DNA of 64,000 nt from Haematococcus lacustris (Eukaryota; Chlorophyta; Chlorophyceae; Chlamydomonadales; Haematococcaceae), in assembly GCA_030144725.1 (NCBI GenBank), contig JASKMD010000029.1, positions 4,579,559 through 4,643,558 of the forward strand, read 5' to 3'. The translations under genes and the position numbers were made by a program. Positions 6,080 to 64,000 of the stretch are shown piece by piece. The notes under the pieces were generated by a model. The model did no database searches and was not told the DNA's origin. It saw nothing but the letters and a program-made list of their open reading frames with translations. The number at the start of each line of letters is the position of its first letter. Positions within the stretch are counted from its first letter, which is position 1.

Positions 6080-6636
6080 GGCTAGTCCTGGCTTGCCCCC
6101 GCGCGGGCTGCGCGTGTGTGGAGGAGGGCGGGTGGGCTGGAAAGGGAAGGCGGACCTGGCAAAGGAGGAGGGCCGGGGGCGGGGGGCGGGGTGGCCTCAA
6201 TGCACGCCAACTTGGCCCCCAAGCGGCGCAGGCGGACCCGAGGCTCACGTGAATAGATGGCCAACGGGGGCCACAGGGGCAGAGGACCGAACTGCTCCTC
6301 CTCCTCCCCAAGCTGAGCTGCCTGCTCGGGCTGCTGCCGCTTAGGCACCCTCAACCTCCCCTCCCGGGGCCCTGCTGACTCAACTACAGGGCTGTCACAA
6401 GAGGCCCCCAGCGAGCTGGCCAGGCTAGCAAAGGGGCTGCACACAGGCAAATTAGTGCGGATATTCGTCATCCTAGGGGGGTAGTTTTTTTATGCGGTTC
6501 GCCTCGGATTGTCCTTGCGACTCCAACGCCACTTGACGCTTGTTGGAATTTTGAGTATGTGAGCAGTTGGAGTGTAGGTACCTACAGTACTGTAGATGTC
6601 TACAGTACTGTAGATGTCTACAGTACTGTAGGTCAG

Positions 6637-7351
6637 ATTTGACAAGGTCTCTTGTAAATAGGGTACCATGCTGTTCTCCACATTCAAACCACCATTTGCT
6701 ACCGCGATTGCACCGTCAGCTTCTGCGTGCTATAAATAGTGAGAGGCGTCAAAGCGTAGGCCCGCAAGCTCGATATGGATATTTGTGCCGAAAGTTGTGT
6801 CCACGCAATAAGGTCGCCATAGGGAGCTACATACATACGTGTAAGGTCTAAGGCCGGGGCCCGTCTCTATCGCAAGCTAGGTCCGTTCTGTCGGTTGTAC
6901 TGGGTACCTCGGCTTGCAAGCTCCCGCAAAGCTGTGGATGTTGATGATGCCCCGCAATCACAACAACCTCCTGCACCGCACCCTCCTATCTAATATCGAG
7001 TGCGGCAGAGATTGCCCCAAAAGTTGTTTGCGGTTGGCCCTCAACCATCCATCATTACATCTAACCTCACATCATTACATCATGACTCTTAGCCTACATC
7101 ATTACATCACCACTTGTGGTCTTGCCAATCACTGCATGCATGGTATGGGCAAGGGCTCTTGGGGGGCTGGTCTCAGGGTCGATACCTAACCCTAGAGGCT
7201 GAATAATGCTGGGCTCGGCAACATAGGCACGCTTTGTTGTCAGCGCATTTGCATAGCACTGTCGGGATAGCAAACGAGCTTGGGCTACATTGAGTTGTTC
7301 CTGCATGGGGGTGAAGGGGGCATGGGGGTTAAGGATGCATGGGGGAAGGCA
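6637..7351 (-). other. G interior, possible coding fragment at 7094-7310
   Basis: Mostly unassigned sequence following a short run of CTACAGTACTGTAG at 6588-6636. On the minus strand 7310-7094 reads as a plausible peptide beginning MQEQLNVAQARLLSRQ and including KRAYVAEPSIIQPLGL. Its composition resembles real coding sequence, but no family is recognised and no full gene can be assembled. It may be a captured exon. Confidence 0.3.
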
Positions 7352-8668
7352 GCTACAGTACTGTAGGGGTCTACAATACTGTAGACCCCTACAGTACTCA
7401 TGACCCCCATGAGTACTGTAGACCTCTACAGTACTCAAGACCCCCATGAGTACTGTAGACCTCTACAGTACTCAAGACCCCCATGAGTACTGTAGACCTC
7501 TACAGTACTCAAGACCCCCATGAGTACTGTAGACCTCTACAGTACTCAAGACCCCCATGAGTACTGTAGACCTCTACAGTACTCAAGACCCCCATGAGTA
7601 CTGTAGACCTCTACAGTACTCAAGACCCCCATGAGTACTGTAGACCTCTACAGTACTCAAGACCCCCATGAGTACTGTAGACCTCTACAGTACTCAAGAC
7701 CCCCATGAGTACTGTAGACCTCTACAGTACTCAAGACCCCCATGAGTACTGTAGACCTCTACAGTACTGTAGACCCCCATGAGTACTGTAGACCTCTACA
7801 GTACTCAAGACCCCCATGAGTACTGTAGACCTCTACAGTACTGTAAACCCCCATGAGTACTGTAGACCTCTACAGTACTCAAGACCCCCATGAGTACTGT
7901 AGACCTCTACAGTACTCAAGACCCCCATGAGTACTGTAGACCTCTACAGTACTCAAGACCTCCATGAGTACTGTAGACCTCTACAGTACTCAAGACCCCC
8001 ATGAGTACTGTAGACCTCTACAGTACTCAAGACCCCCATGAGTACTGTAGACCTCTACAGTACTCAAGACCCCCATGAGTACTGTAGACCTCTACAGTAC
8101 TCAAGACCCCCATGAGTACTGTAGACCTCTACAGTACTCAAGACCCCCATGAGTACTGTAGACCTCTACAGTACTCAAGACCTCCATGAGTACTGTAGAC
8201 CTCTACAGTACTCAAGACCCCCATGAGTACTGTAGACCTCTACAGTACTCAAGACCCCCATGAGTACTGTAGACCTCTACAGTACTCAAGACCCCCATGA
8301 GTACTGTAGACCTCTACAGTACTCAAGACCCCCATGAGTACTGTAGACCTCTACAGTACTCAAGACCCCCATGAGTACTGTAGACCTCTACAGTACTCAA
8401 GACCCCCATGAGTACTGTAGACCTCTACAGTACTCAAGACCCCCATGAGTACTGTAGACCTCTACAGTACTGTAGACCCCCATGAGTACTGTAGACCTCT
8501 ACAGTACTCAAGACCCCCATGAGTACTGTAGACCTCTACAGTACTCAAGACCCCCATGAGTACTGTAGACCTCTACAGTACTCAAGACCCCCATGAGTAC
8601 TGTAGACCTCTACAGTACTGTAGACCCCCATGAGTACTGTAGACCTCTACAGTACTCAAGACCCCCAT
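7352..8668. repeat. 37-bp tandem repeat with palindromic CTACAGTACT core (left array of G)
   Basis: About 35 head-to-tail copies of a 37-bp unit containing TAGACCTCTACAGTACTC and AAGACCCCCATGAGTACTG. Within a unit AGTACTGTAG and CTACAGTACT are inverted, so each junction forms a hairpin. A few units carry the full CTACAGTACTGTAG. Very low divergence suggests recent homogenisation. Confidence 0.95.
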
Positions 8669-8905
8669 GCAGGAACAGCAGCAGGGGGGCAGCAGCAGCA
8701 GCAGCAGCACCAGCAGGGGGGCAGCAGCAGCAGCAGCAGGGGGGCAGCAGCAGCAGCAGCAGGGGGGCAGCAGCAGCAGCAGGGGGGCAGCAGCAGCAGC
8801 AGGGGGGCAGCAGCAGCAGCAGGGGGGCAGTAGCAGCAGTAGGGGGGCAGCAGCAGGAGCAGGGGCGCAGCAGCAGCAGCAGCAGTGGCAGCAGCAGCAG
8901 ATATA
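8669..8905. repeat. (CAG)n-rich run with GGGG interruptions
   Basis: CAG trinucleotides separated every 10-20 bases by AGGGGGG. The same composition occurs in element E at 35122-35440 and 51990-52405. Confidence 0.9.
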
Positions 8906-10092
8906 GTAGGGGCACTGTAGCACCTACCTACCTTTTGGCTGCTTGATGACTGCTGCTAGGAAGGGGGGGGGATTGGAAGAGTGAAGGCGGGGAGGGGGGG
9001 TAGATGTGGAAGGCGGGAGGTGGGAGCCAGGGAGGCGGGAGACGGGGAGGCGGGAGGCAGGGAGGCGGGAGGTGGGGAGGCGGGAGGCTCAACCGGGTTG
9101 GGCTGGGCGGGGGTGGGTTGGGTTGGGGGCATGGGTTGGGGTGGGTGGGGGCATGGGTTGGGGGCATGGGTTGGGGTGGGTGGGGGCATGGGTGGGGGTG
9201 GGGGCGGGGGCGGGGGCGGGGGGGGATGAATTGGGAGGGGGTGGTTGTTTAGGGGAAAGGGAAGTGGAAGGGAGGTGCCCACTAGACCTGCAACCAAGGG
9301 GCGCGCACGTGCGGTAGGGTGACCAGGCTGGGCACTGTGTTAGCTATCACCGTGGCCTTACCTTTGTGGTCGTCCTGGCCTCCTACCTGCTCACACCAGG
9401 CAACATATCCCATGAGCCAGTGGGGTGGGACTGCGGTGGGGAGTGTAGGGTGTAGGGAAGGGAATGTGGGGTGAGGTGGGGGTTGCGATGCCACGTCAAT
9501 CAAAGGGTGGGAGAGGGGAAGAGGAGGCTTGACAAGTATGGGAGGGGAGAGGGAGGGAGAGGGGGAAGGGAGGGGTGGGAAGAGGGTGGGTGGGGTGGGC
9601 TTTCTCCTGGCTGCTGGGATGTCAGGGGAGAGGTGACGGGGAGGGGGGAAGTGGGGGGTGGGTAGAGGTGGAAGTGGAGGGACGACAAGCTGGGCGTTGG
9701 TGGTGGGCGTGGGAAAGGGGAGGAAAAGGGGATGGGGAAGGGTGTGACGATCAATCCTGCAACGGGACAAGGGGCATGCTAGCGGTTAAGGTGGGTACAG
9801 GGTGCCACATACCTGCACTCACCTTGTGCTGGGGTGTGGTGTATATGTGTGTGGGAGGAAGGGGAGGAAGGGAGGGAAGGGAAGGGGAGGTCCATGGGGA
9901 GGGCGAGAGAAGTGGGGAGGGCATTGATAGTCTTAGGTGTATGCGCACAAGACCTGCGGCAACGGTGTGACGATTTGTCAACGGAAGCAAACATTGGACA
10001 TGGGTACTGGATGCACTCACCATTAGAGTAGGGAGATGTAGAGCTGGCAGATGGAGGGGCAGGTGTAGCAGCCCTCCATTACAACCCACCTG
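8906..10092 (-). other. G-rich spacer with degenerate spliceable units
   Basis: The plus strand is strongly G-rich (polypyrimidine on the minus strand). Embedded at about 9282-9370, 9755-9830 and 9950-10030 are degenerate copies of the motif described in findings: on the minus strand a GTGAGT/GTAAGG donor, CAGCCTAAC-like and TTGCAGGT segments. No protein gene is recognised. Confidence 0.55.
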
Positions 10093-10582
10093 GGCTGGGC
10101 TGGGCTGGGCTGGGCTGGGCTGGGCTGGGCTGGGCTGGGCTGGGCTGGGCTGGGCTGGGCTGGGCTGGGCTGGGCTGGGCTGGGCTGGGCTGGGCTGGGC
10201 TGGGCTGGGCTGGGCTGGGCTGGGCTGGGCTGGGCTGGGCTGGGCTGGGCTGGGCTGGGCTGGGCTGGGCTGGGCTGGGCTGGGCTGGGCTGGGCTGGGC
10301 TGGGCTGGGCTGGGCTGGGCTGGGCTGGGCTGGGCTGGGCTGGGCTGGGCTGGGCTGGGCTGGGCTGGGCTGGGCTGGGCTGGGCTGGGCTGGGCTGGGC
10401 TGGGCTGGGCTGGGCTGGGCTGGGCTGGGCTGGGCTGGGCTGGGCTGGGCTGGGCTGGGCTGGGCTGGGCTGGGCTGGGCTGGGCTGGGCTGGGCTGGGC
10501 TGGGCTGGGCTGGGCTGGGCTGGGCTGGGCTGGGCTGGGCTGGGCTGGGCTGGGCTGGGCTGGGCTGGGCTGGGCTGGGCTG
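10093..10582. repeat. (GGGCT)n pentanucleotide array in G
   Basis: About 98 perfect GGGCT units (CCCAG on the other strand). The same pentamer array occurs in C, A and B. A short (TGG)n run follows at 10630-10672. Confidence 0.95.
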
Positions 10583-11378
10583 CAACACAAGGGAGGCAAC
10601 AGTGGGAACGTTGTGAGAAGTTATGAAATGGTGGTGGTGGTGGTGGTGGTGGTGGTGGTGGTGGTGGTGGTGAGGGGGACTGGGAGGGGGTGGTGAACAA
10701 GGGGGTACTAGGCGTGATTGTAAGACCTGCAGCAACCAGGTGTGGTAGCGGTTAGGCTGGATACTAAGGGCTATGCTGCGCAATGCTAGCTCCTTCTAAG
10801 CTCTTACCTTGGTCCTAAGCTCTTACCATAGTCCGTCTGGCCTCTTCGCTGCTCACAACACGTTGTACCTGCCTTGCGTTGGTGCATCAATGCTTGCGAT
10901 TCATTGCGGAGAATCGTTGCGAGGAAACTAGCCGCGAGGCTAGCTGCGATGCTGGCTGCGAGGCTGGCTGCGAGGCTGGCTGCGAAACTGGCTGCGAGGC
11001 TGGCTGCGAGGAAATGGCTGCGAGGTGGGCTGCGAGGTGAGATCCTCGCACCGAGCTGCCTCACAGGTATGCTTCTGCGTTGCTGGACCAGCTGTGTGGC
11101 CGCGAGGTTGTCTGCCGAGTATGTGGCTGCGAGTATGGGCTAGATGTGGCTGCGAGTATGGGTAACCTCGTGCGATGCCATCTGTGGACCAGCTATGTGG
11201 CCGCGAGGTTGTCTGCCGAGTATGTGGCTGCGAGTATGGGCTAGATGTGGCTGCGAGTATGGGTAACCTCGTGCGATGCCTTCGCTGCAATACCGGCTAC
11301 ACGATGCTGCGACTAAGTGTTGGACGGATGCCTTGAATGCAAGTGAGATGTTCAGAATTTTTCTAAGTGCTTAAAGGC
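10583..11378. other. GCGAGGCTGGCT-type repeats and a 101-bp tandem duplication in G
   Basis: 10915-11040 repeats GCTGGCTGCGAG. 11085-11185 is duplicated at 11186-11285 (period 101 bp) with very few differences. A spliceable-unit relic lies at 10720-10860. Similar GGCTGCGAGGCTG runs flank the chromovirus in element E (39230-39540, 47837-47870). No gene seen. Confidence 0.7.
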
Positions 11379-12247
11379 TACAGTACTGTAAGTGGTCTCT
11401 CGAGGTACCTCGAGGTACCTCGAGGTACTGTAGATGTCTACAGTACTGTAGATGTCTACAGTACTGTAGATGTCTACAGTACTGTAGATGTCTACAGTAC
11501 TGTAGGTACCTACAGTACTGTAAATGGTCTCTCGAGGTACCTCGAGGTACCTCGAGGTACTGTAGATGTCTACAGTACTGTAGATGTCTACAGTACTGTA
11601 GGTACCTACAGTACTGTAAATGGTCTCCCGAGGTACCTCGAGGTACCTCGAGGTACTGTAGATGTCTACAGTACTGTAGATGTCTACAGTACTGTAGATG
11701 TCTACAGTACTGTAGATGTCTACAGTACTGTAGATGTCTACAGTACTGTAGGTACCTACAGTACTGTAAATGATCTCTCGAGGTACCTCGAGGTACCTCG
11801 AGGTACTGTAGATGTCTACAGTACTGTAGATGTCTACAGTACTGTAGATGTCTACAGTACTGTAGATGTCTACAGTACTGTAGATGTCTACAGTACTGTA
11901 GATGTCTACAGTACTGTAGATGTCTACAGTACTGTAGGTACCTACAGTACTGTAATGGTCTCCCGAGGTACCTCGAGGTACCTCGAGGTACTGTAGATGT
12001 CTACAGTACTGTAGGTGTCTACAGTACTGTAGATGTCTACAGTACTTTAGATGTCTACAGTACTGTAGATGTCTACAGTACTGTAGGTACCTACAGTACT
12101 GTAAATGGTCTCCCGAGGTACCTCGAGATACCTCGAGGTACTGTAGATGTCTACAGTACTGTAGATGTCTACAGTACTGTAGATGTCTACAGTACTGTAA
12201 GTGGTCTCTCGAGGTACCCCGACAGTACTGTAGACACCTACAGTACT
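11379..12247. repeat. CTACAGTACTGTAG palindrome array (right array of G)
   Basis: Runs of TGTAGATGTCTACAGTAC (18-bp unit) grouped into higher-order blocks that begin with CTCGAGGTACCTCGAGGTAC and end with GGTACCTACAGTACTGTAA. Every unit is itself palindromic. The block length varies by whole 18-bp units. Confidence 0.95.
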
Positions 12248-12386
12248 GTAGCATGGCCGTATCTCACCAACCGCGCAAAATCACGAATTTTAGTTTCAAC
12301 CCCCAATCTTACAATGCCTTCATTTGACTATGTACCAAGTCCGAGGCTCTGAATCTCAAAAATGCTGTTACTAATTTGCCTGAGTG

Positions 12387-12990: not shown

Positions 12991-13479
12991 CACACAGGCA
13001 AATTAGCGCGAATATTCGTCATCCTAGGGGGGTAGTTTTTGATGCGGTTCGCCTCGGATTGTCCTTTCGACTCCAACGCCACTTGGCGCTTGTTGAAATT
13101 CTGAGTATGTGAGCAGTTGGAGTGGAGGTACCTACAGTACTGTAGAGGTCTACAGTACTGAAGGGGTCTACAGTACTGTAGAGGTCTACAGTACTGTAGG
13201 CAATTCTTAAGCTTTTTTTAGAGGTCATATATTTAAATCGTTCCTTTGCTTTTCATGGTGACTCTGCTTGTTTAGGCGACTAGTACAAGCACATGGGATT
13301 CGGCGGCTGACAGTTGTGGTCATGAGACGAGGTCGTGAGATGTTGAATGAACCATGTCGTGTGCTGGCGCGCAAAGTAATAGACGAAGGAGCTTGTAAGG
13401 GCCATTAATTCTTACACCATGCTTGACAGACATTGCAAGGTCATTCAACATGTTTGTGACTCATGCATGTCCCTGTTGC

Positions 13480-14995
13480 CTACTTGTCCATGGATTTGTT
13501 GCTGAATGGAACAAAGTACATGTCCCCCCCACCCTCCTTGTGCGGGAAGAAGGGCACCAGCAGGTGTGTGAGCTTAGCCCCATCTACCGCAAACCAGTCG
13601 TGAGGGCCAGCTGCTGAGTAAAGAGTGGCTGGGTGCCGGCCAACAAGTGAGCGCTGCTGGCGCACCGGTGTGGGAAGGGGAGCCTGGTAAAGCTGCCTCT
13701 GGCTTGGCTTGCGCCCTGAACGCCTGACCTGTGTTGGGGCCTCGTCCCCCTGGCTGTCTGACCCATGGCCATCACCTTGTGTGCCTGGGGGTGCAGCTGA
13801 AGGGACTGTAGCCGGCTGCTGATCTGCTTTCTGCTTCTTGCTGCGCTGTGTAGGTCGTGAAGGCTGCTTCCTTTTTGCAGGCACCCGCTTCTCTGCTGTT
13901 GCTGAGTCGTCCTCAGCAAGGGGTGTGCCTCGTGCTACCGCTAACGTGTCTAGCTGTGGAACAGGGGTGGTGCGGTATAGGCGTGCAATGGCAAGGCGCA
14001 GGAAAACACCCTGCTTGTGTGGGTGCTCCACCCGCACCCAGAACTAGATATGTGATGCATATGGTACCACCCCCCACACCGCAACCAACTCATGCTCCCC
14101 TGTGTATTGCCCGGGTATGATCTCACTCCTACAAATTAATCCCTGCGTCCGTCCCTGCGTGTTTCCAACCTTGTCCGATCGGGCTAAAATTTTAATAGAT
14201 GGTAGTTTGCACAAAATAAAACATATTTTGCAAGAAGAATAATTTGAAAAAATCAACAGCTGTTGCGCTGTGGCCCGCAACCTATCCCTGCACTCATCCC
14301 TGCACTCTAGCCACAGGGCCACAGCGCAGCCGCCTTTGATTTTTTTTAAAAATTTAATCTGGGAAAATATGTTTTATTGTCTGCAAACTACCATCTATCA
14401 AAATTTCAGCCCGATCGGACAAGGTCGGTCAACACGCAGAGACGGACGTAGGGATTAATTTGTAGGAGTGCTGTTGGTACTGGTTCATTACCCAGTTGCT
14501 GTTACGCACATGGACCTTGGTGTAGTCCACACTGTGCATGACCTGCCCGTTGCACTCTGCACGCTTAAAGTACTTGACACGCTGGGGCACTGCTGGGCTG
14601 GCACCACTAACAGGATCTGCAAACACTGCATTGAAGTCTGCATAGCTCCACTCTATGCTCTCAGCCAAGAACTCCTCCCTGAACTTGATGCATGCCTGGC
14701 GCACCCACTCCTCGCCTTCCCCACCATTCGGGCACTCACTGTAACCACACCCCAAGAGCTGGCACATCTCCTCCGCAGGCACAGGCTTAGCATCCCTGAC
14801 ACCCTTGCTCTTCTTTCGCCCCTGCTGGCTAGCTGCCTTGCTGCCCTCCTCATCCTTCTCACCCTCCTCATCCATTCCCTCACCCTCCTGGTCTTCAGCC
14901 CATGCATCCCTCCCATGCTTATGCCTGTGTGTGTTGAACCACTGCTGCATCTGTCGGCTCAAGCGCTCCCGCAAACACATGGCCAAGGTCACCTA
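13480..14995 (-). CDS. H transposase, C-terminal exon (broken by MITE and two TAG codons)
   Basis: The last exon of the tnp2-like gene. It continues in frame from the previous exon through a TAG (GL*VTLAMCLRERL) and then has an acidic linker and a basic Lys/Arg patch. After removal of the MITE at 14124-14470 with one CT duplication it reads MNQYQQIIPGQYTGEHEL without a frame change. A second in-frame TAG follows at about 14044 (ASHI*FWVRVEHPH). The C-terminus has KRKQPSRPTQRSKKQK (a likely nuclear localisation signal) and DWFAVDGAKLTHLL, ending NKSMDK. Both TAGs stand where CAG (Gln) would fit. The C-terminal domain itself is not recognised. As it stands the exon cannot give full-length protein. 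Confidence 0.65.
14124..14470. mobile_element. CACTC foldback MITE, 347 bp
   Basis: Ends CACTCCTACAAATTAATCC with a perfect inverted right end; flanks CT/CT (14122-14123, 14471-14472). It inserted into the last transposase exon. Compared with the 239-bp copy at 30889 it carries an extra central ~100 bp (GCTGTGGCCCGCAACC region) also found in the 37905 copy. Confidence 0.95.
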
Positions 14996-15618
14996 CAGCC
15001 CAGCAGCATGGGAGCCACTGAAGTGCTTGGCACGCTGCATGGCGCGCTCCACAAAGAACTCCGTCACCCAGCAAGCACGACCGCGCTCACGCTCTTGATC
15101 AGGCAACCTGCATGCATAGCACACGCACACCATTTCAAATGTATCAGCGTATTTATGACCTGTTGTATGAGATGGCCAATTGTAGGTGGAGCATGGTGAC
15201 ACCCACCGGCAGCACAACATATGGAGGTTGCTGGAGAACAAGGAGATTGGCACGTCCCCTCCCAGCCAGTCCTTCTCAGCCAGCAGATAGGCATAGGTGT
15301 GAATGGCGTCAGCGCCCTCGTCCATACCCGCTTTCAGCCGGGCCTCATACAGTGCCTCAGCCTCCGGTGTCTTGTCTGAGCTCCGCTGCGGATCTCCCTC
15401 TGAAGGGCATGATGACAGGGCCATGCAGTACTTCAAGGTGTACTCTCCTGGTGCAGCTGGTGTGGCTATCTTGGTTACCTGATGTCAGGTAGTGCAGCAC
15501 AGCCTTCACCAACGCCTTCCAAATGGGCAGGTGCCCGTTCTCCACTGTCACGATGTCTCGAAACACGTACTGCCAGCCATACCGGACGAAATGCATGGAG
15601 TCATCCATGATCCACCCC
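14996..15618 (-). CDS. H transposase, catalytic C-half exons
   Basis: Three exons with consistent phases: 15618-15479, 15447-15207 and 15107-14996. Joined, they read through LTSGEYTLKYCMALSS and NLHMLCCRLPDQER. The segment from LHMLCCRLPDQERERG to FFVERAMQRAKHFSG corresponds in position to the tnp2 C-terminal part, where a His/Leu-rich helix is followed by an ER-x-x-x-x-K motif. Donors are GTAACC, GTGGGT and the acceptors CAG. The call rests on motif order, not on an alignment search. Confidence 0.65.
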
Positions 15619-15683
15619 CTGCAGCATGATGGCTCACATCAGTGTTGTGAAGGGGAAGCTGTTTAATTGTGTCATTTGACCCC

Positions 15684-16390: not shown

Positions 16391-16420
16391 ACCATGCCCT
16401 ACTCAGATCAGCACACTCAC

Positions 16421-52405: not shown

Positions 52406-52429
52406 CCAAGCTCCTGCGGTCAGCCAGTA

Positions 52430-53371: not shown

Positions 53372-53532
53372 AGCACTCAGGATAAATAAGGACCGGTCGC
53401 GATGGGATCGACCATAGCTCATTGGATAGCTTGCATTTAGTCCGTTCGAACGGTACAAGTCTTACGTTGTAACTCGCTACCATCGCGACGAAAAAGGCCC
53501 AACAAAAAGTGTCCTGAAAAGTGCATCGCTTG

Positions 53533-53830: not shown

Positions 53831-54447
53831 TGCAACACCCCAATACACTACAAAATGTATGAAGCGACGCTCACCTATACCTCGCAACACCTCGCTACCC
53901 CCCTGCATCGACACCCAAACACTTCGCAACACCTCCTACGGGACTCCGATGTAGAGCACAAGTTTTGATGCACATTCACCTCACAACCTCTCTACGGGTA
54001 TGCTAATCACATGCATCGATGCGCCCCGCAACACGTTGCTACAAGGACAAACAACACAACATTACCAACAACAACAACACCAACACATGGTGACACCGCA
54101 CTAGCACAACAAGGTGACCCCCACCACCAACACCAACACTATCAACACAACATCAACACCATCAACATAACACCAACAACATCACCAACACAAGCCATGT
54201 CGCACAACAATTGCGGACTGGCAACCACCCAAGTGCTTGGCAATGCTTGGCTGTTTAGTTGATGTGTAGACATGGCATGGCAAGAGTGGGCTGGGTTAGT
54301 TGCTATTACTAGCGCCCTCTCCAAGCTGCCCGCTAGGGAGAGGGGATGTAGACGGGTGCCGGCCTTGGAGGTGGTGGTGGTGGGACAGGAGATGGTAGGG
54401 GTGGGTGGGTGAGGAGACGAGAGGGTGCCACGGGGTGCCCCTAAACC
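53831..54447. other. B interior, left part
   Basis: Contains CCTCGCAACACCTCGCTAC-type sequence, the reverse complement of the ~54-bp GCGAGGTGTTGCGGGG repeats of A/C, then AACAACACC-rich sequence. No gene. Confidence 0.65.
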
Positions 54448-54992
54448 TGGGCTGGGCTGGGCTGGGCTGGGCTGGGCTGGGCTGGGCTGGGCTGGGCTGG
54501 GCTGGGCTGGGCTGGGCTGGGCTGGGCTGGGCTGGGCTGGGCTGGGCTGGGCTGGGCTGGGCTGGGCTGGGCTGGGCTGGGCTGGGCTGGGCTGGGCTGG
54601 GCTGGGCTGGGCTGGGCTGGGCTGGGCTGGGCTGGGCTGGGCTGGGCTGGGCTGGGCTGGGCTGGGCTGGGCTGGGCTGGGCTGGGCTGGGCTGGGCTGG
54701 GCTGGGCTGGGCTGGGCTGGGCTGGGCTGGGCTGGGCTGGGCTGGGCTGGGCTGGGGTGGGCTGGGGTGGGCTGGGCTGGGCTGGGCTGGGCTGGGCTGG
54801 GCTGGGCTGGGCTGGGCTGGGCTGGGCTGGGCTGGGCTGGGCTGGGCTGGGCTGGGCTGGGCTGGGCTGGGCTGGGCTGGGCTGGGCTGGGCTGGGCTGG
54901 GCTGGGCTGGGCTGGGCTGGGCTGGGCTGGGCTGGGCTGGGCTGGGCTGGGCTGGGCTGGGCTGGGCTGGGCTGGGCTGGGCTGGGCTGGGC
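54448..54992. repeat. (GGGCT)n array, about 109 units, in B
   Basis: Pure except for two GGGGT variants near 54754 and 54764. Confidence 0.97.
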
Positions 54993-56329
54993 AAGGCGGG
55001 GCGGGGGACAGGGTGGGGACGTAACTGGAACTCCTGGCTGCTCCTTCTGGTTGCTTTTGGCGGCTGCTCATGGCTGCTCATGGCTCCGCTGCCGCCTTGC
55101 CTGCAACCACCATGCATGCTACACATGCTCATGCATAAGGCTGTTGCCACACTGCTGGCAAGCATGGAGGCATGGCTGCAGCAGCCTATGCTAGCGCCAC
55201 ACACATGTTGCCTTGCCGCTCTTGACTGCCGCTCTTGGCTGCTGCTCCTGGCTGCCACTCCATGCTGCCGCTCCTAGCTGCTGCTCCTGGCTGCCGCTCC
55301 TGGCTGCCACTCCAGGCTGCCGCTCCTAGCTGCTGCTCCTCTGTAAGGGTAAGCGGCAGCAGCAGCAGCAGCAACAGCAACAGCAGCAGGGTATCAGCAG
55401 CAGCAGGGTATCAGCAACAGCAGGGCAGCCGCAGCAGCAGCCGCAGGCGCAGGGGTTACGTTTCGGCTGGCTGTGCTGACACCCCAGCAGCATGTGCACT
55501 CACCTTCAGTCTTGGTTGCTTCACTCCAAGGGGGAGGGGAGGGGAGTTTGGCTGTTCGGCTGTTCCGCTGTTCCGCTGCTCCTCTGCTCCTCTGCTCCTC
55601 TGCTCCTGGCTGCAACTGATGGCTTGGGAGGTGGTGGTTGTGGTGCGGGGAGGAGAGGGTGCCTTGCTCCAGGTTACAAGGCAGGCAGGAAGGCAGGTGT
55701 TTCAGGGAGGGAAGGAGAGCGAGGCGAGTGGGATGATGCGTATTGCCTTGATACTGCAGCAAACACATGGCATGCAAGCGATTAGGCTAGGCACCTCGAG
55801 CTACATAACTACAAGACTAGCCACTCACCATTTCTTGCAAGGGCGTCGCTCCCGCTTCTGAATGCTCATGGTTGTTACCACCACGGGTACCTATCCTGGC
55901 CGCTCCCGCTTCTCCTTGCTGCTGAAGGACTCCTAACTCGAGGCTTCTGCACATGGCTCGCTCTCCTTCATGGCCCCCAACTGCCTTACGGGGCTTCTCC
56001 ACTCCTCCGCTCTATCGCTACCGGCTCCGCACCATGTTGTGTCTCTGCATTGCTGCACCTGCTGCCAATTTCTGTCGCTGACTCCAGATCCTGCGGCTGG
56101 TCGCCAATGCTATGAGGCTGCAGGCTAGCGACGGCTGGCTGGCTCGTAGCTACCCTTTTGGCGACGATTGGCTGCTCCTGGCTGCTCCTGGTTGCTATAT
56201 GCAGCATGCCATTTTGGCGGGGCAGTCTGCTTTCCTTCGCGATCCTTTCCTTACTTCGCGGTACCTCAGCGAAACCTACATGCAAGTCTGCATGCAACCT
56301 GAAAGTTTTGTAACCTGAATCAGGCCCAG
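54993..56329. other. B interior, right part
   Basis: CTGCTCCTGGCTGCCGCTCC repeats (55215-55345), (CAG)n (55355-55455), a spliceable-unit relic near 55740-55830 and a diverged inverted copy of the A/C internal block (56090-56330). No protein gene. Confidence 0.6.
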
Positions 56330-57302
56330 TTGCTGCGCAGCATGGGTCTTAGTTGCTGCGCAGCAAGGGCCTGATGCTGCTGCGCAGCAAGGGTTAGCTT
56401 AGTTGCTGCGCAGCAAGGGCCTGATGTTGCTGCGCAGCAAGGGGTAGCTTAGTTGCTGCGCAGCAAGGGCCTGACGTTGTTGCGCAGCAAGGGTTAGCTT
56501 AGTTGCTGCGCAGCAAGGGCCTGATGTTGCTGCGCAGCAAGGGTTAGCTTAGTTGCTGCGCAGCAAGGGCTTGATGTTGCTGCGCAGCAAGGGTGAGCTC
56601 TGTTGTTGCGCAGCAAGGGCCTTATGTTGTTGCGCAGCAAGGGCCTGTTGTTGCTGCGCAGCAAGGGTTAGCTTAGTTGTTGCCCAGCAAGAGCCTGATG
56701 TTGTTGCGCAGCAAGGGTGAGCTTAGTTGTTGCGCAGCAAGGGCCTTATGTTGTTGCGCAGCAAGGGCCTGATGTTGTTGCGCAGCAAGGGTTAGCTTAG
56801 TTGTTGCACAGCAAGAGCCTGATGTTGTTGCGCAGCAAGGGTGAGCTTAGTTGTTGCGCAGCAAGGGCCTGATGTTGTTGCGCAGCAAGGGTGAGCTTAG
56901 TTGTTGCGCAGCAAGGGCCTGATGTTGTTGCGCAGCAAGGGTGAGCTTTGTTGTTGCGCAGCAAGGGCCTTATGTTGTTGCGCAGCAAGGGTAAGCTTTG
57001 TTGTTGCGCAGCAAGGGCCTTATGTTGTTGCGCAGCAAGGGCCTGTTGTTGCTGCGCAGCAAGGGTTAGCTTAGTTGTTGCCCAGCAAGGGCCTTATGTT
57101 GTTGCGCAGCAAGGGTGAGCTTAGTTGTTGCGCAGCAAGGGCCTTATGTTGTTGCGCAGCAAGGGTGAGCTTTGTTGTTGCGCAGCAAGGGCCTGGTTTT
57201 GCTGCGCAGCAGCGAGGCACTTACACCGTTGCTGCGCAGCAACGTTGCACTTTGTACCCTTGCTGCGCAGCAACGTTGCACTTTATACCCTTGTTGCGCA
57301 GC
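56330..57302. repeat. TTGCTGCGCAGCAA array (right array of B)
   Basis: About 36 palindromes at ~27-bp spacing, GGGCCTGATG and GGGTTAGCTTAG spacers alternating; many carry one change (TTGTTGCGCAGCAA). Confidence 0.95.
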
Positions 57303-57483
57303 CGCACATGGAGGGGGGGGGTACCTCTCGCGCGGATCGTTATATCTCCGCAACCGCTGTGAGTTAGGACTTCGTTCCAGAGCGAGGTCCCTCTTAAACT
57401 CACTGTTCTATCGTTACATTGGAGCGGAATGTCCATCCGATGAAAAAAAGACTGATGCGTCGGCCTTATTTATCCTGAGTGAG

Positions 57484-58903
57484 TGGTCATAGGGTGCCAT
57501 GCAGAAACAGGCTCACTCAAGCGTCGCTAGATGTCTGTTGTCCTGCAACGCCTCCTCCCCTTCTCCAGACGGGGGCCCCTGTCTCTTCTATCCCCCCCCC
57601 TCCTACTGTTACGAGGGCGGCCAACACTACGTCCATGGGACCGGCCCCAGCCTCGACCTCTGTCGACACTACCGCCTCTGTTGCCTCGTCCACCCCGGGC
57701 AACACCTTCACCTCGCTGTGCATGCTGGGCGCCTCTTCCCCTGTTGCCTCTGTTGTTGCGGTCGCCACTGTCATCAGAGCTGGCACCTGTGTCCATAGAC
57801 TGCTCAGATACAACTTCAGACTCAGACTGGGAGGTGGTGGTGGAGGATTGGGAGGTGGTGGTGGATGCATGGGGGCAGCCCATGGAGCATCTGCCACCAA
57901 CACAACCACCTCTTGTACTGCCGCTGAGTGGGCTGCCTGTTGCATTGCCACTGGGTGGGCTGCCTGTTGCATGGGGTGAGGGGGGAAGGGGCGGGGGAGG
58001 GAATGGAGGGGAGGGGGGATTCACAGGGCTCAATCCAGGTGATGCCATGCCGCGAACTGCCGTGGGCCCACTAACACCGGCCCTCCTTGGCTGCTCCTCC
58101 TCAGCCGTCTCCATGTCGTCATCGTCACCCAACCAACCTTCTTCTCGTCTGCTCCTTGACTCCACCTCTGGCCGAAGAACAAGGTCGTCCTCGTAGTGGC
58201 GGGCCAGCAGGAGCCCTGCATCTCCTGGCCGCAGTGGAGCCTCCTCTGGCCTAAGAACAAGGTCGTCCTCGTAGTGGCGGGCCAGCAGGAGCCCTGCATC
58301 TCCTGGCCGCAGTGGAGCCTCCTCTGGCCTAAGAACAAGGTCGTCCTCGTAGTGGCGGGCCAGCAGGAGCCCTGCATCTCCTGGCCGCAGTGGCTCTCCA
58401 TTTGACAGATGGTGAAGGAGGGATTGTAGAGGCGGAGTTGTGGGATGCGGAGGTTGAGGAGCAGGGGGGGGAGGTGTGGGGGGGTTAGGATGTCTTGGGG
58501 TCCTACCGGGACGCAGTGGCGGCGTTGGAGAGCAGGGAGTTGGGTGGGATGAATTAGGGGGTAGGGGTGGTACCGGGCGGCCTAGGAAGGTGGTGGCGGG
58601 AGGCCGTGGCGGCCACACTTGGGAGGGAGGTGGCCAATCTATTGGTGGAGGTGTTGGTCTCAGCGGTGTGGGTGGGAGGCCTGGGAGCGGTGAGGGTGAG
58701 GGAGGGGGCCAAGCTGGTGGGGAACGAGCTGGCTTGGGGGGTGTGGGGGGCTGTGGCTGGGGACTAGGCGAGGGAGGAGGCCAAACTGGTTTGGAACGGG
58801 GTGGGGAACGGGGTGGGTGTGAGATCCCCGCTTGGGACTGTTGTCGAGCATGCTGCAATTGCTGAAGTACATAGGGTAAATTGGCCCTTGTAATCGGCCT
58901 CAA
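57484..58903 (-). CDS. H transposase N-terminal disordered exon
   Basis: About 458 residues, Pro-rich then acidic then RGG-rich. It contains three near-identical 26-residue tandem repeats (core DAGLLLARHYEDDLVL) at 58170-58400. It runs in frame through a TAG at 57527 (TTDI*RRLSEP) into MTTT at the element B junction; the TAG may be an intron boundary or a mutated Gln codon. The true start is unresolved: the open frame begins with TTG at 58903, and further exons (58940-59133) may lie upstream. Assigned to the transposase by position and frame only. Confidence 0.5.
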
Positions 58904-59401
58904 CGGCCGTGCTTGTAAGGCAGTCTACGGTGACAAAGCGCGATACCTGCAACCAATGTCGACCGCCGTAAGTAAACGTCCCCTACTTTTAGCATCGCCT
59001 TGTCGGCCACATACGAGGGCTCGGAGCGCGTCTCCGGTGGTTCCCGTGATGGCTGGGCGAGGTTAGGACGGCGTGAAGACCGGGTTGGGTCTGCATCAGA
59101 CCAATCACGAGTCACCACTATTTCAGGCGTCAACCCTGTCGCTAGCTGTCCCTATGGGTCCTGCGTGGTTGCCCCACCTGGCCGTGGCCGTGGCATTTAT
59201 TTGTGATGGGCCGTGCTAGACGAGGCTTTCAGCTGTATGTGGTAGTGTGGGTCGCTCGTTGCGCTATCGGCGGTGGCTGATGGCGGGTCGCGACTGTTGG
59301 GTTGGGTGTGGTGTTTGATGCAATACACAAGCGCAAAAATCGGACTCGCACTCATTGCTGTGTGCACTATCCTTCCCTCGTTGCTCAGTCTATTATCACC
59401 A
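58904..59401. promoter_or_regulatory. Divergent intergenic region between two H genes
   Basis: It separates the minus-strand transposase from the plus-strand gene at 59402. An additional minus-strand open segment at 59133-58940 (KVGDVYLRRSTLVAG) may be the first transposase exon. A plus-strand in-frame extension from the ATG at 59318 would add a hydrophobic stretch (IGLALIAVCTILPSLL). No clear TATA box. Confidence 0.35.
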
Positions 59402-60619
59402 ATGGCCGCCTCAACCATCATCGATGTAGAGGTCATCTTCAATGTTGGCGGTAGCGAAAGCGAGCCGATGAGCATTCATCGCCGTCGACCGCCATTCACC
59501 GCTGAAGCCTTGGAAGAGTTGCTGAAGAAAACGGGTACCTTGTATCGTGTGTACCTCGATGAAGATCGTGAGCCGGTTCTTGATGTGCCCTATACTACAG
59601 AGGACTACACCACCATGGCAGGCCACATGGTTGACCTGGGGACCAGCCTGGATACTTGGCGTAATCTATTCGACAAGACTGGCCTAGCGTTCGTGACATG
59701 GAGGAATGAGACCGGTGGCCTCGTCATCGAGGTGTACCTGTACCCATTGTCCACGTCTCAGCAGGTGAGGTGGCTCCTTGGTGCTTGCCTCATCCCCCCT
59801 ACATGCATTCAAAGCCTGATGTGGTAGGTGTACGTTGAGTTTGCATGTGATTGTGCAGGGCCCTGGTGAGGAACAGGCAGCAGAGCCCCTACTGGACGGT
59901 GTGTCGCAGGAGGCAGCCAGCGCACAACCTTTAAGCACACGGTCTGGTGCCGACAAGGCCTCGGCCCCCCCTGCAGCCCCCCTGCAGCCCCTACCCCAGC
60001 CGTCAGCCGCCAGCAGGCAGCGGAGACAGAAGGATGCCGCTGGCCCCTCGAAAGAGGCAGCCCAACCCCAGCCGCCCAGCTCAGCAGCTGCAGCAGCAGG
60101 ACGTAAACCTGGTCCTGCAGCAGCGGTGCATGTGGGAGGGACTAAGCGTGGCTCAGCCCAGGCAGTGAGGCAGGTGTGTGAACCACAGGGTGCATGCCGG
60201 TGTTTGTACATGTGCTCATGTTCCATCTGCCACCTGCCCAACACTCCACGGCCCTTGTGTCCCGTGGGCCATGCTGCACCATTATGGTGGTCGTGTGTGG
60301 CTGCAGCCGGCGGGGGACAGTGGCGAAGGCATGGTCGAGACCCAGCCTGTGCTTAAGAGGGTGGCTGGGAGCCGGCGTGCCGTGGGGTCCCCAGCTGGAC
60401 CCCATGCTCATGGAGCAGTCGGGAGCAGTGGTGTCAGTAAGGTGTGCTTGTGTGTGTGTGGTACGGTTATGTATGTGGTTATGAACCACATGTTATGGGT
60501 GTGAGTGTGGCCTTGCATGGTTGCTGATGTAGGCACCGGCAGCTGGCCCCCTCCTTTCCTCCCCGGCCTCGCCATCCACCCGCAGCATGGGACAGGTGGA
60601 AGTCGGAGGTGGCTCAATG
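59402..60619 (+). CDS. Second gene of H, unknown protein (3' end not seen)
   Basis: Four exons with matching phases: 59402-59764, 59859-60173, 60307-60436 and 60533-60619; donors GTGAGG, GTGTGT, GTAAGG and GTGAGT. The first exon encodes a compact folded-looking region (IIDVEVIFNVGG, EALEELLKKTGTLYRVYLDE, LVIEVYLYPL). The rest is Ala/Pro/Gln-rich and disordered. I do not recognise the family. Element F is inserted 18 bp past the last donor, so the remaining exons lie to the right. CACTA elements often carry a second, DNA-binding gene beside the transposase; that role is possible but unsupported by motifs. An upstream ATG at 59318 is an alternative start. Confidence 0.55.
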
Positions 60620-60772
60620 GTGAGTGTGTGTCTGTGCACTCGCAGAAAAGTTCATGAGAAAAGTTGAAAGTTTTGACAAAGTGGCTTGATAGAATGTATT
60701 TTTTAGCGGTTCTAAGAATGGGGGTGTAAACCTAAAATCGAGGAAAAATCGGGCTGAGGAGATACGAGAAAA

Positions 60773-61870
60773 CCAGTACTGGTCCACCCCCAACCAGTAC
60801 TGGTCCACCCCCAACCAGTACTGGCCGCCCCGCAACCAATACTGGTCCACCTCCAACCAGTACTGGTTTACCCCCCAACCAGTACTGGTTTACCCCAAAC
60901 CAGTACTGGTTTACACCCAACCAGTACTGGTTTACCCCAAACCAGTACTGGTTTACCCCAAACCAGTACTGGTTCACACTCAACCAGTACTGGCTGACCC
61001 CCAACCAGTACTGGCTGGCCCCCAACCAGTACTGGCTGGCCCCCAACCAGTACTGGTCCACACCCAACCAGTACTAGTCCGGCCCCCAACCAGTACTGGT
61101 CCGGCCCCCAACCAGTACTTGTTCACCCCAAACCAGTACTGGTCCACCCCCAACCAGTACTGGTTCACCCCCAACCAGTACTGGTCCTCCCCAAACCAGT
61201 ACTGGTCCACCCCCAACCAGTAATGGTCCACCCCCAACCAGTACTGGTCCACCCCCAACCAGTACTGGTCCACCCCCAACCAGTACTGGCTGACCCCCAA
61301 CCAGTACTGGTCCACCCCCAACCAGTAATGGTTCACCCCCAACCAGTACTGGCTGGCCCCCAACCAGTACTGGTCCACCCCCAACCAGTACTGGTCCACC
61401 CCCAACCAGTACTGGTCCACCCCCAACCAGTACTGGTCTACCCCCAACCAGTACTGGTCCACCCCCAACCAGTACTGGTCTACCCCCAACCAGTACTGGT
61501 CCACCCCCAACCAGTACTGGTTCACACCCAACCAGTACTGGCCACCCCCAACCAGTACTGGTCCACCCCCCAACCAGTATTGGTTTACCCCCAACCAGTA
61601 CTGGTCCGGCCCCCAACCAGTACTGGTTCACCCCCAACCAGTACTGGTCCACCCCCAACCAGTACTGGTTCACCCCCAACCAGTACTGGTCCACCCCCAA
61701 CCAGTACTGGTTCACCCCCAACCATTCTTAAACCAGTACTGGCTGGACTCAAACCAGTACTGGTTCACTATAGCCGACCAGCGCTGGTTCAGTAACCAGT
61801 ACTGGCTTGCCCCCTACCAGTACTGGCTGCCCCAAATCCAGTACTGGCCTAAGTCAACCTGTACTTGTTA
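60773..61870. repeat. AACCAGTACTGGTT array in F
   Basis: About 50 units of CCCCCAACCAGTACTGGTCC (20 bp), inverse of 52430-52918; degenerates after 61740. Confidence 0.95.
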
Positions 61871-62232
61871 GCCCATAACCAGTATTGGCTGGCCCCCAAC
61901 AGTTCTGGCTGGACTCAAACCAGTACCGGCTGTCCCTAAACCTCTGCCTTGTCTACCAGTGCTTGTTTACCGACCAGCGCTGGTCCATGAACTTGCTGAC
62001 TACCAACCAGTACTGTTTCTGGGTTGTGTATTAATTCTGTGGCGTGATTGGGCTCTGCTTTCTTATTGTTGGTTGGTGAATTATCTGATGTTTCACCAAC
62101 GTATGTAGCTGATTACATGTGCAAGGCATTCATGTCACAGCTAGCTCCATGTGTGCAGAGTCCGTCAAGGCAATGAACGCTGATGCATTCAATGTTCAGG
62201 CGTCACATTGATGTCTGGTCCCCTTCACTCTA
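61871..62232. other. Degenerate array tail and unique sequence of F
   Basis: CAGTATTGG, CAGCGCTGG variants to about 62015, then unique AT-richer sequence up to the stop codon of the next gene. No gene seen. Confidence 0.6.
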
Positions 62233-62949
62233 TCATGCACGCTTGGCCCTCTTAGCTGCCTGTTCTTTCGCCTTTTCCTGAGCCTTCTCTGCAGCATAAG
62301 CTGCTTCCTTATGGCTCAAGATATAGCTCAACACCTCCTGCACCTGTGCATCAGGTAACAGACTATCCGCCTCAAACAGCTCGTCCACAGGCTCCAATGC
62401 AGGAGGCACATATGGCACAGGCGGGCCAAACACGCCAGCTTGGTGCTCTCCCAAACCCAGTGGCCAATACTGCTCCTGCTCAATGAGACGCTGCGGTGGG
62501 CTGGTGGGTTGGCACTTGTACAGCAGCTGCTTGTGTATCGTTGCCACGAAGCATGTCTCGTCATTGACATACCCCTGGCTGCCATAGAAATGCACCCTGG
62601 TGGAGGCGCTGCCCTCCAGCCCACAATCTCCCGCATGGATCGTGTAGCCACGCATGCCCAGCACCTCCCCTGGCTGCAAGGTCACCCGGTACACCTGCAT
62701 CTTGTCCACAGCATCCATCTGCTCCTTGAACTGTTGTGCATCGAGGTCGCCCTTGTTCCTTGCCTCCACCAGCAACACCTTGACGTGGCTGTCTGGGATG
62801 ACCAGGACGCGTGTCAGCTCCAGTGCTATGATTAGCACCAGGCCATCACGATCCCAGCTGAACGGTGCAGGCCGTGCTGCTGAGGGTGCACCAGGCGTAG
62901 AGGTGGGGGGGGCCTGAGGTGGGTCGGGGCTACTGCTGGTGCTTGCTGC

Positions 62950-62988
<39 letters not shown>

Positions 62989-63593
62989 CCTTTGCTTGGC
63001 TGCCTTGCTTGATCTGCCCTTGCGTGAACTGCCCTTGCGTTTTTTGGGTGGCTGGGTCGGCACCAAGGCCACATGCAGCGCCTGTGCTGGCACCAACCGT
63101 GTGGCCGGCACCCGGGGCAGGTCTACCCCTTCCACGTCGCGTCCATACTTGGCATCATTCACCAGCACGGTGCCCCCACGCAGCGTGATCTGGGACAGGC
63201 TGACAGCGTACTGCTGCAAGCTGTTCAGGTAGTCCTTTGCAACATTGAATGCTGTCGCCCACTGCTTCAGCTTGTGCTGGGCTGCTTCTCCTGCCTCTCC
63301 CCCCTGGGCTGCTATGCCCTGCTGCCTCTCGATGCTGCGAATAGCCCGAGCTGTCGTGCAGGCTGACATGGATACGGAGTCAGGGAGGCTGCCATCTGTA
63401 TTGGGGGTGGTGAAGGGCATTTGGAGGCGCTGGCCGGTGCTGTAGTTCACGCCCTTCACTGCAGCCTGTAAGACCTTCTTGCAAAGGTGGATGTCGTGGA
63501 AGATGGCCCTGCCGAACTCCAATGCCAGCAACTGGCATGCCCACACACGGAGTTTGTTAGCCCTGAGGTGAGCTGGGAGGCGGGTCCTTGCAA
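62233..63593 (-). CDS. Beta-helix (cupin/2OG-oxygenase-like) protein, 5' end cut by element D
   Basis: An open frame of about 453 residues on the minus strand, ending in TGA at 62233-62235. The N-part is helical (LPAHLRANKLRVWACQLLAL), the centre is a Lys-rich basic segment and poly-Ala/Ser linker, and the C-part has VLVIPDSHVKVLLVEA, LQPGEVLGMRGYTIHAGD, TRVHFYGS. The PGxxLxxRGxxxHAG ... RxHxY pattern resembles the second half of double-stranded beta-helix folds. A full metal triad (HxD...H) is not evident, so catalytic function is uncertain. The C-terminus is a Lys/Ala-rich coiled coil. Element D interrupts it at 63594, so the start is missing. It may belong to F or H. Confidence 0.55.
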
Positions 63594-64000
63594 CACTCAC
63601 GATAAATAAGGCCGACGCGGGGGCCTTTTTTGCGTCGGAAGGACATTCTGCTCCGATAGGATGATAGAACGTTGAGTTTAAGGGGGACCTCGCTCTTGAA
63701 TGAAGTCCTAACTCGCAGCGGTTGCGGAGATACAACGATCCGCGCGCGAGGTACCCCCCCCTTTTTGGGAATCTGTACAGATGCCCGTCTAATGGGCCTG
63801 CCATCTGTACAGATGCTTGCCGATGGCCCCATGGATATGCGGCATCTGTACAGATGCCGTCTTCTTATCTGTACAGATGCAAATTGTTGTTATCTGTACA
63901 GATTCCAGTTAGCTGTCTGTTCAGATACGTGCATCTGTACAGATAAACCTCTAGTAATCTGTACAGATAGAACATAGGCTGTATCTGTACAGATACTTAA
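63594..64000 (+). mobile_element. Element D: CACTC-type transposon, left end only
   Basis: The left end CACTCACGATAAATAAGG and ~170-bp end block match A and C closely, with AA as the presumptive target dinucleotide (63592-63593). It continues beyond the window. Confidence 0.88.
63776..64000. repeat. ATCTGTACAGAT palindrome array (left array of D)
   Basis: Perfect 12-bp palindromes ATCTGTACAGAT spaced 15-25 bp; differs from the A/C palindrome in the central dinucleotide. Confidence 0.93.

What the first reader, a model, noticed from the sequence alone, without database searches (positions are those of the whole stretch)
6588..64000. Each family carries its own palindrome in subterminal arrays, and both ends of an element always match
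Both ends of G have CTACAGTACTGTAG; A and C have ATCTGYRCAGAT at both ends; B has TTGCTGCGCAGCAA at both ends; E has CCAGTACTGG at both ends, and F has it at its visible end. D, whose terminus equals that of A and C, has ATCTGTACAGAT. All are 10-14 bp with a CTG/CAG pair around a central dinucleotide or tetranucleotide. Co-variation between ends 4-20 kb apart suggests that the palindrome is recognised by a family-specific protein, as TNPA-type proteins bind subterminal repeats of En/Spm, and that both arrays were replaced together or homogenised across the element.
Basis: partly seen in the sequence, partly recalled or inferred. Interest (0 to 1): 0.9.

Follow-up and report, generated by a model that had tools for sequence, protein, structure and literature searches.

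The report
Matched palindrome arrays on algal transposons
In the green alga Haematococcus, jumping-gene families that share nearly the same outer ends carry rows of their own short palindrome just inside both ends, and the two ends matched in every array-bearing element read, which suggests a family-specific label read by a protein.

Summary
Confirmed and extended. The window is Haematococcus lacustris. Each array-bearing element with both ends visible (A, B, C, E, G1) has the same palindrome at both ends; 293 of 293 full palindromes lie in element ends or in an intron of the gene inside G2. In the genome, 46 of 46 elements of the A-D terminal lineage match end to end, 31 of them taken without regard to array; 45 of 46 have a 2-bp target duplication. 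CTACAGTACTGTAG occurs 32,756 times (control 1); the 100 listed places all lie inward of a G-type terminus. The two ends usually share the palindrome but not the spacers. Elements whose outer modules agree at 166 of 167 bp can carry different classes (ATCTG-TA-CAGAT versus ATCTG-TG/CA-CAGAT). Arrays and interiors travel together, so 'homogenised across the element' is not supported. Best reading: CACTA-like transposons whose arrays bind a family-specific dimeric protein, as TNPA does in En/Spm. Binding is inferred, and much of the matching is family descent. Motif divergence between CACTA subfamilies is published for soybean. The hAT gene inside A belongs to a separate nested element.

The parts
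6440..12386 (+). Element G1: 16-bp TIR CAC(A/T)CAGGCAAATTAG, TSD TG; palindrome CTACAGTACTGTAG at both ends
   Evidence: TIR pair; empty-site paralog at window 1-485
6582..6631 (.). G1 left subterminal array (18-bp units, 142 bp from the end)
7347..8669 (.). G1 second left array (37-bp units, mostly half sites; 4 full palindromes from 7353)
11379..12251 (.). G1 right subterminal array (135 bp from the end)
12991..64000 (.). Element G2, left end only; right end not found in the window; contains gene H and the nested A, C, E, B and F
   Evidence: TIR at 12991; right flank of the empty site not found again in the window
13132..13199 (.). G2 left subterminal array
15678..16385 (.). CTACAGTACTGTAG array inside an intron of gene H (between exons ending at 16420 and starting at 15617)
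13729..57729 (-). Gene H of G2 (minus strand, exons split by introns and insertions); collinear with residues 14-1087 of P0011
17163..26378 (+). Element A, TSD GT, palindrome ATCTG(TG/CA)CAGAT at both ends
17340..17689 (.). A left array
25948..26235 (.). A right array (limits approximate)
17824..20933 (+). Separate hAT element nested in A (8-bp TSD GGTGGCGC); not A's transposase
26777..30612 (+). Element C, TSD CA, palindrome ATCTG(CA/TG)CAGAT at both ends
26965..27580 (.). C left array
30093..30463 (.). C right array
31788..53052 (+). Element E, TIR CACTCGCAGAAAAG, flanks TAT/TAT; CCAGTACTGG arrays at both ends; holds a nested LTR retrotransposon
31954..32051 (.). E outer left array
33318..35108 (.). 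E inner left array
50983..51571 (.). E inner right array (inverted relative of the inner left one)
52424..52918 (.). E outer right array
53374..57481 (-). Element B (inverted relative to A), TSD AG, palindrome TTGCTGCGCAGCAA at both ends
53524..53819 (.). B array at its low-coordinate end
56329..57302 (.). B array at its high-coordinate end
60637..64000 (+). Element F, left end only; CCAGTACTGG array from 60771 to about 62015
63594..64000 (+). Element D, left end only; ATCTGTACAGAT array from 63771

Best explanation
These are DNA transposons of the CACTA-like (CMC/CMCT) kind with CAC...GTG termini and mostly 2-bp target duplications (shown). Each end has two layers. The outer module (about 140-180 bp) is shared across families and is presumably what the transposase cuts (inferred). 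The inner layer is an array of a family-specific 10-14 bp palindrome; in the A-D lineage the first site is at a nearly fixed distance and about three quarters of the site spacings are 23-27 bp (shown). The palindrome is most likely the site of a dimeric, element-encoded protein: a TNPA-like accessory protein, or a DNA-binding domain of the transposase (inferred). By binding both arrays that protein would pair the ends, so only elements with the same site at both ends keep moving (inferred). Families, meaning array plus interior, are inherited as units. The intron array in gene H could also regulate that gene (inferred).
For: 46 of 46 A-D-lineage elements are concordant by core 8-mer (26 YR, 16 TA, 4 CG); 31 of 31 in the sample taken without regard to array, and 12 of 1107 core sites differ from the class of the opposite end. 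Random pairing of the 31 predicts 0.49 concordance and reached at most 25 in 100,000 shuffles. Left and right arrays share the palindrome, not the spacers, in A, B, C and E's outer arrays and in the genome sample. Palindromes mutate less than spacers at p < 0.01 in 4 of 9 arrays (F 1.3% vs 11.7%, B left 3.6% vs 18.9%, B right 5.4% vs 16.4%, E outer right 0.8% vs 7.8%). At five homologous positions A, C and D carry coherent but different centres (14 of 15, permutation p 5e-5). First left site at 178/179 in 40 of 42 TA and YR elements; 716 of 965 spacings are 23-27 bp. TSD and empty sites.
Against: No binding protein was identified. H and its relatives have no Pfam match above a curated cut-off (best is a low-complexity keratin-like hit in P0012) and no NCBIfam match; the AlphaFold model of a relative failed (pLDDT 36.6). 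Copies of a family match partly by descent, so 46 elements are not 46 independent events; independent contrasts are roughly TA/YR/CG in one lineage and E-F/G in the other. Five of 9 arrays show no significant core/spacer difference (E inner left, where the core is slightly worse, E inner right p 0.054, G2 intron, C left, A left). Agreement of the core is partly by construction, because units were found by an 8-bp core. Some ends do share spacers (G1 left/right; E inner arrays). One related TIR pair with matching TC flanks (L039 4635-8811) shows no repeated palindrome by the same test, and the MITE-like elements have none. E departs from the 2-bp rule.
Confidence: 0.65

Rival explanations
1. 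Pure descent: families keep their arrays because copies are inherited, and the palindromes are satellite-like repeats without a binding protein; end matching needs no selection.
For: Array class goes with interior similarity (mean coverage TA-TA 0.53, YR-YR 0.71, TA-YR 0.19). Five of 9 tested arrays show no significant excess of core conservation. G1 ends and E inner arrays share spacers.
Against: Spacers at the two ends of an element are mostly unrelated while the palindrome is the same, so one motif had to be reached or kept twice. Core conservation in 4 of 9 arrays. Nearly fixed first-site position and 23-27 bp phasing. Coherent centre changes at homologous, non-repeated positions.
Confidence: 0.21
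2. The two arrays were homogenised across the element by gene conversion or replaced together (part of the first reader's reading).
For: E inner arrays are an 80-86% inverted repeat extending past the array; G1 left and right units share spacer bases.
Against: In A, B, C and the 46 genome elements the two ends share few spacer words; array class goes with the interior.
Confidence: 0.06
3. The palindromes serve the host or silencing rather than transposition, for example as paired CAG/CTG (CHG) methylation sites or chromatin sites.
For: Every palindrome holds a CAG and a CTG (sequence); CHG methylation of transposons is recalled from plants.
Against: Silencing would not obviously need a family-specific flank or centre, nor matching ends.
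Confidence: 0.06
4. The hAT transposase gene in A is A's own transposase and its DNA-binding domain binds the arrays.
For: DUF659 and hAT dimerisation domains at 18711-20663 inside A.
Against: It sits in its own element, 17824-20933, with a perfect 8-bp TSD and 13 of 14 matching terminal bases; A itself has a 2-bp TSD.
Confidence: 0.01

Closest known systems
En/Spm (CACTA) with TNPA binding of subterminal motifs; soybean Tgmt* and Tgm1 (Zabala and Vodkin 2008, PMC2613891; search listing and passages seen)
   Same: CAC...GTG termini, conserved outer ends, subterminal repeated motifs that differ between subfamilies in one species; the passages say motifs and their binding proteins may co-evolve and diversify within species.
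   Different: Here termini are CACTC/CACAC, TSD mostly 2 bp, the motif is itself a 10-14 bp palindrome in arrays of up to tens of copies, and two classes in one terminal lineage differ only at the central dinucleotide. No TNPA or Tnp2 homolog was recognised by Pfam.
[quoted passage not shown] passages seen)
   Same: CA...TG termini and 2-5 bp TSDs; the H relative P0011 has an acidic motif followed by C(2)C in the order given there.
   Different: No catalytic domain was detected by HMM; the word 'subterminal' does not occur in that paper's text.
hAT elements (Ac, Hermes) with transposase binding of subterminal repeats (recalled; starts of related abstracts seen)
   Same: Short motifs repeated at both ends that promote end recognition.
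   Different: hAT usually makes 8-bp TSDs; A-G do not. The hAT here is a nested bystander.

Membership tests
CACTA / EnSpm | CACTA terminus, CAC...GTG ends | tested here: inconclusive
   CAC...GTG met at the ends located; fifth base is C (CACTC), or CACAC at one G end
CACTA / EnSpm | 3-bp TSD (as reported for soybean Tgmt*) | tested here: not met
   2 bp at G1 and a MITE by an empty paralog, at A and B by the uninterrupted protein, and in 45 of 46 elements; E alone fits 3 bp
CACTA / EnSpm | Subterminal repeat arrays at both ends | tested here: met
   exceptions L039 4635-8811 and the MITE-like elements
CACTA / EnSpm | Transposase with Tnp2-type domain | tested here: inconclusive
   No Pfam match above cut-off and no NCBIfam match for H relatives; structure model unusable
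CACTA / EnSpm | TNPA-type protein binding the subterminal motif | not testable with these tools
   Needs a binding assay
CMCT clade (Kojima 2025) | CA...TG termini and TSD of 2-5 bp | tested here: met
   definition from PMC12730594 passages
[quoted passage not shown]
   P0011 has ADTPAR at 344, C(2)C at 361, H(3-4)H at 772 and 804, but also C(2)C at 164 and H(3-4)H at 146 before that; such short motifs are weak evidence and the catalytic residues are not established
hAT | 8-bp TSD | tested here: not met
   flanks of A, B, C, E and G1 lack it; only the nested element 17824-20933 has it

The most novel reading that the evidence does not exclude
In one terminal lineage the central dinucleotide of a 12-bp site (TA versus TG/CA, in identical ATCTG..CAGAT arms) is an identity code. 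Separate proteins, or one protein with switched specificity, read TA or YR arrays, so that elements with practically the same outer ends form separate mobilisation pools and mixed elements are dead.
Probability: 0.35. Interest if true: 0.82.

Novelty: new variant of a known kind. Interest (0 to 1): 0.64.

Why it matters
It gives a natural experiment on how transposon families that share outer ends stay distinct. Two array classes with the same arms and different centres are common in one genome (26 YR and 16 TA of the 46 elements read) and never mixed in an element read. That makes the old TNPA idea (shared cutter, family-specific pairing protein) directly testable by DAP-seq and array-swap assays. 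It also shows how far such arrays spread in this algal genome: one 14-bp word occurs 32,756 times.

Tried and rejected
Rejected: the hAT gene as A's transposase (own 8-bp TSD and TIR); exchange of arrays between the two ends as a general rule. Failed: Pfam, NCBIfam and AlphaFold identification of H. Led nowhere: viral-contig scans for termini and arrays. Searches found nothing; one search found 17 contigs with one or two CCAGTACTGG pairs each, which I did not study further. The genome-contig scan found nothing. The tree of outer modules was redone with 42 elements: class changes were 10 (left) and 8 (right) against shuffled means of 13.1 and 13.0 (P 0.049 and 0.001), and nearest neighbours are of the same class in 30.7 (left) and 38.2 (right) of 42, above chance. 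Outer modules thus keep some class signal, so I say 'shared', not 'freely exchanged'.

Limits of the counts. In one search the mask for the G1 second left array was a 20-bp stretch of two half sites and the link, not the palindrome, so that array (0.1% vs 2.0%) is left out of the '4 of 9'; G1 right was not scored; in C left only one site type was masked. Of 20 loci, 12 gave one element with both ends and were used; L031, L032, L033, L037, L040, L041, L044 and L045 did not. The second pair in L039 has no repeated palindrome and is not among the 46. Of adjacent plus/minus pairs in the first 100 places I took the 31 between 0.5 and 10 kb and left out one of 110 bp and those more than 10 kb apart (nearest 10.5 kb). 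L029 and L030 share flanks (probably one insertion duplicated), so 46 is at most 45 insertions. L065 (TT/TG) is the one TSD miss. In one search, 37 of 583 A-D-type sites were not within 2.6 kb inward of a detected terminus (L040 16, L037 10, L026 6, L032 5). In one search the sixth array is cut by the end of the 100-place list.

Not done because the machine did not answer: genome counts for the E/F terminus and for ACCAGTACTGGT, TTGCTGCGCAGCAA and ATCTGTACAGAT and for the B terminus. So E/F matching rests on element E in the window plus single ends in three loci (L027, L033, L034), and the second-end check for G in the genome on two position pairs without TSD.
Full report
What was given. I checked this in the window, then in the genome.

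Source. The hAT-like ORF at 18711-20663 has four relatives of 85-96% identity annotated as Haematococcus lacustris (the fifth hit is from Chara). All five relatives of gene H and four of five of the F ORF are from that species. The window lies at G000:C166:4579559-4643558 of a 308-Mb assembly.

Window check. The full palindromes number 293: 55 G-type, 31 A/C-type, 9 D-type, 20 B-type and 178 E/F-type. All 293 lie in the listed end regions or in the array inside gene H; 20 Markov sequences give means of 0 to 0.15. Only one site is off-family, a D-type site in A's left array. Array-bearing elements with both ends visible are G1, A, C, E and B; G2, F and D show one end.

Boundaries. TIR searches give 2-bp duplications for G1 (TG), A (GT), C (CA), B (AG) and for MITE-like pairs at 12536-12767 (GA), 14124-14470 (CT) and 37905-38248 (TT); the pair at 30889-31127 lies in a repeat and is ambiguous. 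E does not match at 2 bp but fits TAT/TAT. Window 1-485 is a copy of the flanks of G1 and of the 12536 MITE (98-99% where aligned) without either insertion, which shows both insertions and their 2-bp duplication. Joining the flanks of A and of B, with one copy of the duplication, restores the reading frame found in P0011 (GDGGVHPKGY|WLPVEV; HPMTT|TYDN). So A and B interrupt exons of gene H. C and E lie between exons: P0011 matches the window exon by exon, residues 14-1087 from 57729 down to 13729, with B, E, C and A in the gaps and no match inside them.

What is inside. G2 begins at 12991 and no right end was found in the window. Gene H (minus strand) lies in it. The array at 15678-16385 lies between two H exons (16420 and 15617) that are contiguous in P0011. 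The hAT ORF in A is in its own element, 17824-20933, with an 8-bp duplication.

Palindrome versus spacer. Aligning units on an 8-bp core, left and right arrays of A, B, C and of E's outer arrays agree in the central 10 positions (0.82-1.00, partly by construction) and to a degree in the next two (0.60-0.94), while positions 8-18 are near chance (0.26-0.37). G1 left/right and E inner arrays share spacers too (0.52-0.70), so there duplication or homogenisation may have happened. Wrap-around alignment shows fewer mismatches in the palindrome than in the spacer at p < 0.01 in 4 of 9 arrays (E outer right, F, B left, B right) and no significant difference in 5 (E inner left, E inner right, G2 intron, C left, A left); a tenth array, G1 second left, was masked differently.

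Same outer end, different label. A, C, D and B share a 167-bp left module at 85-95% identity, with the first site at the same place. At five homologous positions the centres read TG,TA,TG,TG,TG in A, CA x5 in C and TA x5 in D, while 47-50 of 50 arm bases agree (permutation p 5e-5). B has CG centres and TTG...CAA flanks. The right ends of A and C and B's other end also share their outer part. G1 right aligns with E right and F left, with the core CAGTACTG at the same place but other flanks.

Genome test. CACTCANGATAAAYAAGG has 1,079 exact matches, control 0. I read both ends of 46 elements: 3 in the window, 12 near relatives of A, and 31 taken in order from the list without regard to array. Class was called from 8-bp cores (CTGTACAG; CTGTGCAG or CTGCACAG; CTGCGCAG) in the first 532 bp or so of each end. 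All 46 have the same class at both ends: 26 YR, 16 TA, 4 CG. Of 1107 core sites, 12 do not fit the class of the opposite end. Random pairing of the 31 gives 0.49 concordance, maximum 25 in 100,000 shuffles. 45 of 46 have matching 2-bp duplications. Left and right arrays of an element share few centre-masked 10-mers: mean 0.010 (TA), 0.030 (YR), 0.088 (CG); arrays of the same side within a class share 0.29-0.62 and between classes 0.00-0.03. The first left site is at 178/179 in 40 of 42 TA and YR elements, and 716 of 965 spacings there are 23-27 bp.

Families versus outer modules. Interiors of the 26 fully fetched elements group by class (coverage TA-TA 0.53, YR-YR 0.71, TA-YR 0.19). Outer modules do not separate by mean identity (left 0.962, 0.944 and 0.949 for TA-TA, YR-YR and TA-YR; right 0.892, 0.896 and 0.887), though nearest neighbours are of the same class more often than chance. 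L083 (TA) and L091 (YR) agree at 166 of 167 left-module bases and have different arrays from the first site on. The simple account is families (array plus interior) with outer modules that are conserved or occasionally exchanged, rather than repeated simultaneous replacement of both arrays.

G and E/F in the genome. CAC(A/T)CAGGCAAATTAG has 1,294 matches, control 0. CTACAGTACTGTAG has 32,756, control 1. The 100 listed places, all on contig C1, lie within 2.4 kb inward of a G terminus; the nearest site is at exactly 135 or 142 bp in five of six arrays, as in G1, and the sixth is cut by the end of the list. Two position pairs (C1:1529326/1545581 and 1857090/1864631) have arrays at both ends; their TSDs were not read. 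In the other fetched loci, CCAGTACTGG arrays (L027, L033, L034) sit next to the E-type terminus and the G array (L035) next to the G-type one, 4 of 4.

Counter-evidence. The TIR pair in L039 (4635-8811; 4 and 3 mismatches, flanks TC/TC) shows no repeated palindrome in the same test, and the MITE-like elements have none of the five palindromes. No protein is shown to bind. H relatives have no domain match above cut-off. Concordance within families is partly descent, so the independent contrasts are few.

Mechanism. Shown: matched arrays, nearly fixed placement, mostly unrelated spacers, family-specific cores, 2-bp duplications. Inferred: a dimer binds each palindrome; the arrays pair the ends; the outer module serves the cutter. 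TNPA binding of subterminal repeats and the need for TNPA and TNPD in En/Spm are described in the soybean paper (PMC2613891, passages), whose authors already say that subterminal motifs and their binding proteins may co-evolve and diversify within a species. What I did not find in print is the palindromic form in long arrays in an alga, and two classes that differ only at the centre. The searches behind this cover an open-licence library only, and beyond the passages named I saw listings and starts of abstracts.

Filing. Termini and duplication length fit the CMCT clade as defined in PMC12730594 (passages). For CACTA in the strict sense the 3-bp duplication was tested and not met, and the Tnp2 domain was not found, so I call it CACTA-like.

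Change on checking: the count of arrays with a core excess went from 5 of 10 to 4 of 9, and confidence in the best explanation from 0.66 to 0.65 (the descent rival from 0.20 to 0.21).

Noticed in passing
17824-20933: hAT element nested in A: 8-bp TSD GGTGGCGC, TIR CAGTGTTACCAAA, DUF659 and hAT dimerisation domains; four H. lacustris relatives of 85-96% identity.
   Followed up: yes
39553-47831: Chromodomain LTR retrotransposon inside E: gag and pol ORFs on the minus strand, LTR-like direct repeats 97% identical.
   Followed up: no
12536-12767, 14124-14470, 30889-31127, 37905-38248: Short MITE-like elements with CACTC...GAGTG ends and 2-bp duplications (30889 ambiguous), holding none of the five palindromes.
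   Followed up: partly
62236-63591 (minus): F-encoded ORF that D interrupts; four of five relatives found are H. lacustris, the fifth is labelled a Bosea MAG and is probably algal contamination of that bin; the RGY..HAGD motif resembles cupin/2OG oxygenases (recalled).
   Followed up: partly
1-485: Empty-site copy of the flanks of G1 and of the 12536 MITE; the similarity also ends where G2 begins at 12991.
   Followed up: yes
P0011 and P0013 (relatives of H): Parts of both look like Fanzor/TnpB pieces (recalled, not tested), suggesting that Fanzor genes lie next to H-like genes in this genome.
   Followed up: no
10090-10582, 21430-22582, 28274-28561, 54447-54992: Long CTGGG/CCCAG pentanucleotide satellites inside G1, A, C and B.
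   Followed up: no
YR elements, left arrays: In YR elements the asymmetric centre has a direction: left arrays are TG-dominant in 20 and CA-dominant in 6 of 26. Possibly two subfamilies by orientation.
   Followed up: partly
L039:4635-8811: Related TIR pair with matching TC flanks but no repeated palindrome by the test used.
   Followed up: no
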